Shown here: positions 44,270-63,789 of the stretch, piece by piece
Layout: each line of letters starts with the position of its first letter
How positions within the stretch are numbered: the first letter of the stretch is position 1
Source of the DNA: a virus
Virus record (IMG/VR): IMGVR_UViG_3300013126_000010
Span: 62,001 to 126,000 of that record
DNA length: 64,000 nucleotides
Direction: 5' to 3' (one strand)
Notes under the pieces: generated by a model
What the model saw: only the letters and a program-made list of their open reading frames with translations
Told to the model about the DNA's origin: nothing
The model's database searches: none
Program-made: the position numbers and the translations under genes

Positions 44270-44863
44270 TTATGGACGTTTTTCTATCACTTTATCCGCT
44301 AACCCGAATGAGACAGCATCGTCTGCACTCATGAAAAAATCTCGTTGCATTGCATTTTTAAAATCATCATATGATTTTCCAGCAGAATTATGTTTAACAT
44401 ACAACTCTGTCAACCGTTCATTCAACCGCTCAGATTCTTCGAACTGTATTTTCATATCGTGGATAGTACCACGGGTGCCAGCAGATACACTGTGAATCAT
44501 TGTTCTGGTATCTGGAAGAATAAATCGTTTACTGGGTGCACCAGCTTGTGCAAGGAATGAACCCATTGAGCACACTTGACCCATTGCATAAGTTGCAACA
44601 TCTGGTTTGATAAACTCCATTGTATTATAGATGGACAATCCTGCAGTAACTGATCCACCAGGAGAATTAATAAAAATGCTTATGTCAGAGGTTGGATCTT
44701 CTGATTCTAAGAATAATAGTTGTGCAACAATGACATGTGACATTTCATCATGGATTTCGCCATTGATAAAAATCACTCTATCACGCAACATTCTGCTAAA
44801 AATATCGAAGCTACGTTCACCACGCGATGATTGTTCAACAACAACCGGGATTAAATTACTCAT
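44270..44863 (-). CDS. clpP: ClpP protease
   Basis: 197 residues from [11 protein letters not shown] (44863), close to E. coli ClpP. The catalytic triad is visible: Ser in [13 protein letters not shown], His in TMIHSVSAG, Asp in [12 protein letters not shown]. The [16 protein letters not shown] oligomerisation/oxyanion strip is intact. With the phage ClpA it could form a complete ClpAP protease. A 47-residue membrane ORF overlaps its start. Confidence 0.96.
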
Positions 44864-44999
44864 TATTATATTCACCATTTACTAAGGGGGTTTCAGAAAA
44901 ATCTTTAATTGTGTTAGTCATTATAACATGATCTATAATGTTTGGCAATATAAAAACACTTAATAAAATGACAACAGTCCAAAATAAATAATTATTCAT
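44856..44999 (-). CDS. small membrane protein
   Basis: 47 residues: one hydrophobic helix (5-22, [18 protein letters not shown]) and a polar tail. The ATG follows the phosphoesterase stop by one base, and its stop lies inside codons 2-3 of clpP, so the three genes are coupled. Unknown role. Confidence 0.6.
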
Positions 45000-62459: not shown

Positions 62460-62790
62460 GGTGGATTGTTTTTTCGTTACTGTATAAGTACAATCCACCT
62501 AAAACTTATTTGCTATTACTTATGCAGTAATAGCAAATCCAGCATAAACGTCATCGTTTGCGTTTAATTTTTTGATTTTTACATCTTTCTCGATGATTCT
62601 AAATTATTCTTTCTCAACCACGTCGAAAACCTTTCATCCCCATAATAAGAGCATTGTTGCTATAATTAGGATTGGGTTCAGGTGTTATCGCTAACAAGGG
62701 AGTTCAATGCCCTTATTGTGGAGATGGGCGTATCGAAACGCCGTCCGCAATTTTTACTTAAATAATCTTTCAGCCATTTCTAGCAACGAA
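62460..62790 (-). ncRNA. ssrA: circularly permuted (two-piece) tmRNA gene
   Basis: Acceptor piece comes first on the minus strand: AATTGCGGACG, T-arm GGCGT-TTCGAT-ACGCC, acceptor CATCTCC and A (ends near 62719). An intervening loop of about 75 nt follows. The coding piece begins GGGGATGAAAGGTTTTCGACG (62641), and GGGGATG pairs with CATCTCC as in E. coli GGGGCTG/CAGCTCC. The resume codon GCA is at 62561 and the tag is ANDDVYAGFAITA, stop at 62520-62522. A TTTGCTATTAC/GTAATAGCAAA hairpin covers the tag end and stop, as helix 5 does. The flanks of the loop extend the acceptor helix to 22 positions. The 5' limit is approximate. Confidence 0.9.
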
Positions 62791-62795
62791 TTCTT

Positions 62796-62996
62796 TTAAT
62801 CATCATCTATTTCATCATCTGTGCTTGCACGAATAATCATAGTATCACATGAACATAATAATTCATATGCTTTCTCAAATGTCCCTTCCAGCCAAAATAT
62901 TTTTTTGGAGCAAGTATGACATTCAAATACAACACATCCTGTAGTAATATCACATATATTTTTAAACTGTATTTTAAATGTTTCAAAATCAATCAT
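62796..62996 (-). CDS. small Cys-rich hypothetical protein
   Basis: 66 residues with CHTC and CSC (possible zinc site) and an acidic DDEIDDD end. It lies directly upstream of the tmRNA acceptor piece and may share its transcript. Confidence 0.6.
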   Translation of the reverse strand: MIDFETFKIQFKNICDITTGCVVFECHTCSKKIFWLEGTFEKAYELLCSCDTMIIRASTDDEIDDD

Positions 62997-63135: not shown

Positions 63136-63789
63136 TTAATCTTTACCACTTAATGACAACAGTATTTGAAGAATGTTCAAGAACATATTCAAAATATCCA
63201 AATATAGTTGGACAGTTGCTCTAATGTAATTAGTTTCACCACCATTAATAATTTCACTGGTGTCATACAATATAAATCCAGAGAATATTACAACGGCGGC
63301 AAATGATACCATCAATTGTAATCCAGGAATATGAAATATAATCCCTGCAATACTGACCACGATTAGACCGATCAATGCTACGAATAATGTTCCACCTAAA
63401 AATCCAAAATCTTTCTTAGTGATGGTCACATAAGACGATAATGCGATGAATACAAGAGCAGTAAGACCGAATGCATATGCGATTAGTTCTGGACCATTAA
63501 CAAACTGTTCAGTAACTTGATGCAGTACTGGTCCAAGTGTTAATCCTTCAAATCCAGTGAACAACAGTACACAAACCAACCCAAGTGATGATTCTGCAGT
63601 TGCCATTGTAAGAAATAACAATCCAATTGCTACTATCAATTGCACCCATATATTAATGGGTTCGATATTCATCAGTACTGCCACCCAAGCTGAAATGGCT
63701 GTGTTGAGTAATGTACCGGATAATAACCAGTATGTATTACGTAGTACTTTGTTCGTTTCGAAAGTTGAATCTATTGTTGTAGCTGCCAT
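63136..63789 (-). CDS. Bax inhibitor-1/YccA-family membrane protein
   Basis: 217 residues with seven hydrophobic helices. Family blocks are NTYWLLSGTLLNTAISAWVA, FTGFEGLTLGPVL, GFLGGTLFVALIGLI, SGFILYDTSEIINGGETNYI and ATVQLYLDILNMFLNILQIL. In bacteria YccA binds and inhibits the FtsH protease. A phage copy might protect phage proteins, as lambda CIII does by a different fold. Preceded by sigma70-type promoters. Confidence 0.9.
   Translation of the reverse strand: MAATTIDSTFETNKVLRNTYWLLSGTLLNTAISAWVAVLMNIEPINIWVQLIVAIGLLFLTMATAESSLGLVCVLLFTGFEGLTLGPVLHQVTEQFVNGPELIAYAFGLTALVFIALSSYVTITKKDFGFLGGTLFVALIGLIVVSIAGIIFHIPGLQLMVSFAAVVIFSGFILYDTSEIINGGETNYIRATVQLYLDILNMFLNILQILLSLSGKD

What the first reader, a model, noticed from the sequence alone, without database searches (positions are those of the whole stretch)
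62460..62790. Circularly permuted two-piece tmRNA encoded by a phage
The acceptor half (CGGACG, T-arm, CATCTCC) precedes the coding half (GGGGATG...GACG, tag ORF) on the minus strand, and GGGGATG pairs exactly with CATCTCC. Permuted tmRNAs are established in alphaproteobacteria, some betaproteobacteria and cyanobacteria; I know of one-piece tmRNAs in some phages but cannot recall a permuted one. The host may itself have a permuted gene.
Basis: partly seen in the sequence, partly recalled or inferred. Interest (0 to 1): 0.95.

Follow-up and report, generated by a model that had tools for sequence, protein, structure and literature searches.

The report
Phage-encoded permuted (two-piece) tmRNA
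A large T4-like phage carries its own gene for tmRNA, the RNA that frees stuck ribosomes and tags the unfinished protein, in the rearranged "two-piece" form; the gene looks real and intact, but phages with such genes were already known and turn out to be common.

Summary
Rfam RF04321 (tmRNA_permuted) matches minus-strand 62777-62520 over its whole length at 104.7 bits (cut-off 47, E=2e-19). The acceptor half precedes the coding half. GGGGATG pairs with CATCTCC and keeps the G3.U70 wobble that marks alanine identity. The tag reads ANDDVYAGFAITA-stop. A 13-bp helix in the intervening segment brings the two cut sites together. The one-piece model does not win. The 184.7-kb record is a T4-like myophage.

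It is not a first. Phage two-piece tmRNAs were published in 2022 (Melnitz, PMC9004378). Here I found them by covariance model in phages of Sinorhizobium, Ruegeria, Pseudomonas, Stenotrophomonas and Xanthomonas (often unannotated) and in many IMG/VR contigs. Ten distinct sequences keep all 12 pairs tested, 7 with compensatory change.

Three features are worth keeping. ARAGORN misses this gene (a 6-nt T-loop is a likely reason). The tag ends in ITA instead of AA (relatives: MVA). The phage also encodes intact-looking ClpA and ClpP but no recognisable SmpB. Most likely it supplies extra trans-translation capacity using host SmpB and AlaRS. A private tag-to-phage-ClpAP route is possible but untested. 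New member of a known kind.

The parts
62719..62777 (-). acceptor (tRNA-like 3') piece of the permuted tmRNA, up to the discriminator A; the true 5' end may lie slightly upstream (beta_tmRNA model starts at 62796)
   Evidence: RF04321 match; beta_tmRNA boundary
62727..62742 (-). T-arm GGCGT-TTCGAT-ACGCC; 5-bp stem, loop of 6 nt instead of the usual 7
   Evidence: alignment to other phage tmRNAs
62720..62726 (-). 3' half of acceptor stem CATCTCC; followed by A-CAA, so CCA is not encoded
62642..62718 (-). intervening segment removed on maturation; arms 62717-62705 and 62656-62644 form a 13-bp helix extending the acceptor stem
   Evidence: duplex -21.1 kcal/mol, 0 of 300 shuffles as low; fold
62635..62641 (-). 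5' half of acceptor stem GGGGATG, with G3.U70 wobble; start of coding piece
62520..62561 (-). tag reading frame: GCA resume codon to TAA, ANDDVYAGFAITA
   Evidence: CM alignment to the end of RF04321
62509..62537 (-). hairpin enclosing the tag stop codon (11-bp stem)
62460..62499 (-). second 10-bp hairpin with a 20-nt loop downstream of the tag; probable 3' part of the coding piece
44270..44878 (-). phage ClpP (202 aa), catalytic Ser-His-Asp positions conserved by alignment
   Evidence: PF00574 228 bits; PDB ClpP match 220 bits
18434..20731 (-). phage ClpA-like unfoldase (765 aa), both P-loops and an IGF ClpP-docking tripeptide at the place of E. coli IGL
   Evidence: phrog_4871 856 bits; ClpA 1ksf 692 bits
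61333..61518 (-). neighbouring tRNA-Thr(tgt) and tRNA-Asn(gtt); Asn also lacks encoded CCA (CAA)

Best explanation
A functional, circularly permuted tmRNA gene of a large T4-like phage. One transcript folds so that a helix in the intervening segment joins the two halves. Host tRNA-processing enzymes (RNase P at GGGGATG; 3' trimming plus CCA addition after CATCTCC-A) would cut the intervening segment out, leaving an acceptor piece and a coding piece held together by base pairing. Host AlaRS charges it through G3.U70 and host SmpB delivers it to stalled ribosomes. The ribosome switches to the tag frame, adds (A)ANDDVYAGFAITA and terminates. The phage thereby raises ribosome-rescue capacity during infection, when mRNA is being degraded and ribosomes stall. 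Shown: gene architecture, intact elements, compensatory conservation across phages, phage context. Inferred: transcription, cleavage, charging, tagging and benefit.
For: Full-length RF04321 match far above cut-off. Two-piece models beat the one-piece model. Acceptor and T stems: 120 of 120 cells paired in 10 distinct sequences, 7 pairs with double-sided change, 0 of 500 shuffles equal, U70.G3 invariant. Significant intervening-segment helix here and in most relatives. Open tag frame with resume codon in register. Same gene form in related phages G061, G068 and the isolate Phosso. Phage hallmark genes in the record. No SmpB in this record or 10 others, consistent with use of the host's.
Against: T-loop is one base short and ARAGORN does not call the gene. 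CCA is not encoded (though tRNA-Asn and tRNA-Thr here lack it too). Tag ends ITA, not the common AA. No RNA data. No clear promoter: the scan finds no more sites than chance.
Confidence: 0.8

Rival explanations
1. Private degradation route: the phage tag, with its altered C-terminus, is recognised by the phage's own ClpA-ClpP rather than (or better than) host ClpXP, so the phage controls the fate of tagged proteins.
For: Same record encodes ClpA (both P-loops, IGF docking tripeptide) and ClpP with catalytic residues. The trio recurs in G061, G068, G075 and in Phosso. In the window and G061/G068 the tags end ITA and MVA instead of AA.
Against: ClpA+ClpP occur without permuted tmRNA in Atu_ph07 and PA5oct, and most tmRNA-bearing records have no ClpP detected (39 of 41, many of them fragments and some one-piece). 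Phosso has ClpAP but an ordinary ALAA tag. The tmRNAs of these phages do not group together (weak support).
Confidence: 0.12
2. Interference: the RNA competes with host tmRNA for SmpB or ribosomes and adds a poorly degraded tag, sparing incomplete proteins or blunting host quality control.
For: Non-AA tag end here, in relatives and in a cyanophage-type contig (LV end). A tag-less phage tmRNA form (DS6A type) inhibits host tmRNA (literature, PMC4131195).
Against: The tag frame and resume signals are maintained, and most phage permuted tmRNAs keep AA-ended tags. Stability of an ITA tag was not tested.
Confidence: 0.12
3. Decaying passenger: a captured tmRNA gene on its way to a pseudogene.
For: 6-nt T-loop, no encoded CCA, tag end ITA, sub-cut-off scores with the clade models.
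Against: All stems pair, tag frame open, G3.U70 kept, 13-bp precursor helix intact, 104.7 bits full length. Two phage tRNAs here also lack CCA.
Confidence: 0.1
4. Remnant of a host ssrA integration site carried off by a prophage.
For: ssrA is a common integration site (general knowledge).
Against: The gene is complete at both ends, sits in a tRNA-rich region of a T4-like genome, and no host flank is visible. Integrase absence was not tested systematically.
Confidence: 0.02

Closest known systems
Two-piece tmRNA of Methylophilales phage Melnitz (MZ577097; PMC9004378)
   Same: Permuted tmRNA in a T4-like phage; RF04321 113.4 bits; host SmpB presumed
   Different: Alpha-type (alpha_tmRNA 106.7 bits), tag ANDNYVPVDYALAA, glutamine riboswitch downstream; the window gene is nearest the beta model and has an ITA end
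Permuted tmRNA of Sinorhizobium jumbo phage Phosso (PV764938), closest isolated relative by DNA polymerase (47%)
   Same: Permuted tmRNA (113.3 bits) together with phage ClpA and ClpP
   Different: Groups with Melnitz and RpAliso, 414-nt intervening segment, ALAA tag; probably a separate acquisition
Permuted tmRNAs of related virus records G061/G075 and G068
   Same: Same phage clade, ClpA-ClpP-tmRNA on the same strand in the same order
   Different: 22-aa tag AKASKFEYMTVDFSLEAADMVA; encoded CCA; beta_tmRNA above cut-off
Betaproteobacterial two-piece tmRNA (RF01850)
   Same: Architecture, G3.U70, tag start
   Different: Window scores 50.9, below the 84-bit cut-off
Sinorhizobium jumbo phage AP-J-162 (PMC11242549)
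   Same: Published jumbo phage with one tmRNA and several Clp genes
   Different: Form of its tmRNA not stated in the passages read; sequence not examined here

Membership tests
Permuted (two-piece) tmRNA, RF04321 | Covariance-model match above the gathering score over the whole model | tested here: met
   104.7 bits vs 47, 1-213/213
Permuted (two-piece) tmRNA, RF04321 | Acceptor half encoded upstream of coding half, halves pairing in the acceptor stem | tested here: met
   CATCTCC 62726-62720 precedes GGGGATG 62641-62635 on the minus strand; 7 pairs
Permuted (two-piece) tmRNA, RF04321 | Alanine identity G3.U70 | tested here: met
   Present; invariant in 10 distinct sequences
Permuted (two-piece) tmRNA, RF04321 | Tag reading frame with resume codon and stop | tested here: met
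   GCA...TAA, ANDDVYAGFAITA
Permuted (two-piece) tmRNA, RF04321 | 7-nt T-loop (typical, not required by the model) | tested here: not met
   TTCGAT, 6 nt; total score is far above the cut-off all the same
Permuted (two-piece) tmRNA, RF04321 | Mature RNA in two pieces | not testable with these tools
   Needs RNA data
beta_tmRNA RF01850 | Match above gathering score | tested here: not met
   50.9 vs 84 bits
alpha_tmRNA RF01849 | Match above gathering score | tested here: not met
   35.7 vs 50 bits
One-piece tmRNA RF00023 | Best-scoring model with downstream acceptor end | tested here: not met
   Not reported; the two-piece beta model is the best of the clan
Complete phage trans-translation module | Phage-encoded SmpB | tested here: not met
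   No PF01668 match in the 184.7-kb record, possibly incomplete

The most novel reading that the evidence does not exclude
Some large phages carry a private tag-and-destroy route: their own permuted tmRNA with a tag end no longer suited to host ClpXP, read by a phage-encoded ClpA-ClpP, so that proteins from stalled ribosomes in infected cells are routed to a phage protease.
Probability: 0.1. Interest if true: 0.8.

Novelty: new member of a known kind. Interest (0 to 1): 0.36.

Why it matters
Ribosome stalling should be frequent in phage-infected cells, and why phages carry tmRNA is unsettled. This case adds a divergent member that a standard caller (ARAGORN) misses, shows that permuted tmRNAs are widespread and often unannotated in phages, including phages of Pseudomonas, whose own tmRNA is one-piece (general knowledge), and points to a testable pairing of phage tmRNA with phage ClpAP.

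Tried and rejected
Chance or tRNA false match: rejected by E-value, full-length match and compensatory changes. One-piece tmRNA: not supported. First permuted tmRNA in a phage: rejected by literature and by my own matches. Phage SmpB: none found. ClpAP strictly linked to permuted tmRNA: rejected, since Atu_ph07 and PA5oct have ClpAP without it. Single inherited tmRNA in the ClpAP phages: not supported, since window, G061/G068 and Phosso fall in different places of a weak tree. Neighbour Bax1-I protein as a probe for relatives: no viral-contig hits. First genome contigs pattern scan: nothing. DNA similarity search of the locus in phage records: only chance-level hits. Host could not be assigned.

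Full report
What is there. On the minus strand between 62777 and 62460 the order is: acceptor arm, T-arm (62742-62727), acceptor 3' half CATCTCC (62726-62720), discriminator A and a 77-nt intervening segment, acceptor 5' half GGGGATG (62641-62635), D-loop-like TTTTCGACGTGG, and a tag frame GCA AAC GAT GAC GTT TAT GCT GGA TTT GCT ATT ACT GCA TAA (62561-62520), followed by two hairpins (62537-62509, 62499-62460). Rfam's permuted tmRNA model matches end to end at 104.7 bits, cut-off 47, E=2.4e-19. In a permissive scan the best model of the tRNA/tmRNA clan is the two-piece beta_tmRNA, and the one-piece model is not reported. For scale, in 150 genomes of one bacterial order only five genomes exceed the permuted cut-off and the other listed matches lie at about 27-44 bits. 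The stem is not perfectly Watson-Crick: the third pair is G.U, which is the alanine identity signal and supports the reading.

Is it under selection as an RNA? I aligned acceptor and T stems from ten distinct sequences: the window, two related virus records, and phages Phosso, Melnitz, RpAliso, DLP_6/Marzo, QDWS359, Rb1 and PA_L9. Sequences found only through a pattern with a fixed acceptor were left out. All 120 cells pair, seven pairs show changes on both sides, no shuffle of 500 reaches this, and sliding the partners destroys it. The U.G pair is invariant. The intervening segment of the window forms a 13-bp helix that prolongs the acceptor stem (duplex -21.1 kcal/mol, 0 of 300 shuffles as low); similar helices with different sequence occur in most relatives, though not convincingly in Phosso, G004 or the Rhodocyclaceae gene. 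This is what a precursor cut by tRNA-processing enzymes should look like; the cutting itself is inferred.

What carries it. The window is bases 62001-126000 of a 184,707-base viral record. The record has a portal protein, tail sheath, virion proteins, SbcC-like subunit and ribonucleotide reductase, a T4-like family B DNA polymerase and an ATP-dependent DNA ligase, and at least 14 tRNAs, all within about 26 kb around the tmRNA. The closest isolates by DNA polymerase are the Rhizobiaceae jumbo phages Phosso (47%) and Atu_ph07 (43%). The record may be incomplete, since related records reach 372 kb. The host is unknown.

Known or new. The Melnitz paper (PMC9004378) reports a two-piece tmRNA in a methylophage and 53 two-piece among 133 unique phage tmRNA structures, mostly from marine or aquatic samples. 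I confirmed Melnitz, and found RF04321 above cut-off in Phosso, RpAliso, Pseudomonas PA_L9 and SM1, Stenotrophomonas DLP_6, Marzo and QDWS359, and Xanthomonas Rb1. In the PA_L9, SM1, RpAliso, DLP_6, QDWS359 and Rb1 records no tmRNA is annotated at the place. In IMG/VR one exact pattern gave 62 loci, of which 33 show the permuted layout by a simple rule; all 15 of these loci that I scanned with Rfam scored above the permuted cut-off. Phage two-piece tmRNAs are therefore ordinary as a kind. ARAGORN, the usual caller, finds most of these but neither this one nor Phosso's. The likely reason here is the 6-nt T-loop; Phosso has an aberrant T-loop and a 414-nt intervening segment.

What is particular. 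(1) The tag ends ITA. In the related records G061/G075 and G068 it is AKASKFEYMTVDFSLEAADMVA; most other phage tags end in AA. The final residues are the main ClpX/ClpA recognition site (general knowledge), so degradation may differ. (2) The same genome encodes ClpP (PF00574, 228 bits; catalytic Ser, His and Asp positions conserved in the alignment) and a full-length ClpA homologue with both P-loops and an IGF at the docking loop. ClpA, ClpP and permuted tmRNA occur together, on one strand and in one order, in G000, G061, G075 (nearly identical to G061) and G068; Phosso has all three in another arrangement. Two long relatives, G063 and G076, have ClpA but neither ClpP nor permuted tmRNA. Against a tight link, Atu_ph07 and PA5oct have ClpAP without permuted tmRNA. 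(3) There is no SmpB in this record or ten others, so host SmpB must serve. (4) A weak tree places the window, G061/G068 and Phosso tmRNAs apart, which hints at separate acquisitions. Jumbo phage AP-J-162 was already published with one tmRNA and several Clp genes (PMC11242549), so even the combination is on record, though the passages I read draw no link between them.

How it most likely works. The transcript is processed into two pieces, charged by host AlaRS, delivered by host SmpB, and rescues ribosomes stalled on the broken mRNAs of an infected cell, adding an alanine-plus-13-residue tag. Architecture and conservation are shown; processing, charging, tagging and benefit are inferred. The most novel reading not excluded is a private tag matched to the phage's own ClpAP. 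I give it about one in ten, because Phosso, with ClpAP, has an ordinary AA-ended tag.

Caveats. T-loop deletion, missing CCA and the odd tag end could mark decay, but two of the four window tRNAs also lack CCA and every paired element is intact. Co-occurrence counts are small and come from fragments. The statement that Pseudomonas has a one-piece tmRNA is general knowledge and was not tested here.

Noticed in passing
L238, L239, L240, L241, L242, L244 (Pseudomonas PA_L9 and SM1, Ruegeria RpAliso, Stenotrophomonas DLP_6 and QDWS359, Xanthomonas Rb1): Unannotated permuted tmRNA genes in isolated phages; several are beta-type although the hosts are gammaproteobacteria outside the classical betas.
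   Followed up: partly
L006:7950-8243, L038, and others with a 7-nt interval: Cyano-type phage tmRNAs whose intervening segment is only 7 nt; the L006 tag is ANKIVAFSRQTALV, without the usual AA end.
   Followed up: partly
L263 and L267 (Herbaspirillum sp. alder98, G088): A bacterial genome with both a one-piece tmRNA (tag ANDNSYAQAA) and a permuted one (118.6 bits, tag ANEPQFVAYGT); the second may sit in a mobile element.
   Followed up: partly
window 63136-63789, minus: Bax1-I (BI-1/YccA-like) membrane protein next to the tmRNA, 181 bits; only three relatives in 50,697 phage records. YccA-type proteins modulate the protease FtsH in bacteria (general knowledge).
   Followed up: partly
L249 (Phosso 349596-350198, minus): Permuted tmRNA with a 414-nt intervening segment and an atypical T-loop, not called by ARAGORN.
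   Followed up: no
L065:12049-12126, minus: freshwater-2 cis-regulatory RNA match, 54.4 bits, elsewhere in the same phage record.
   Followed up: no
L067:20-13489, plus: ORF of 4489 codons in the same phage record, not searched.
   Followed up: no
   Followed up: no
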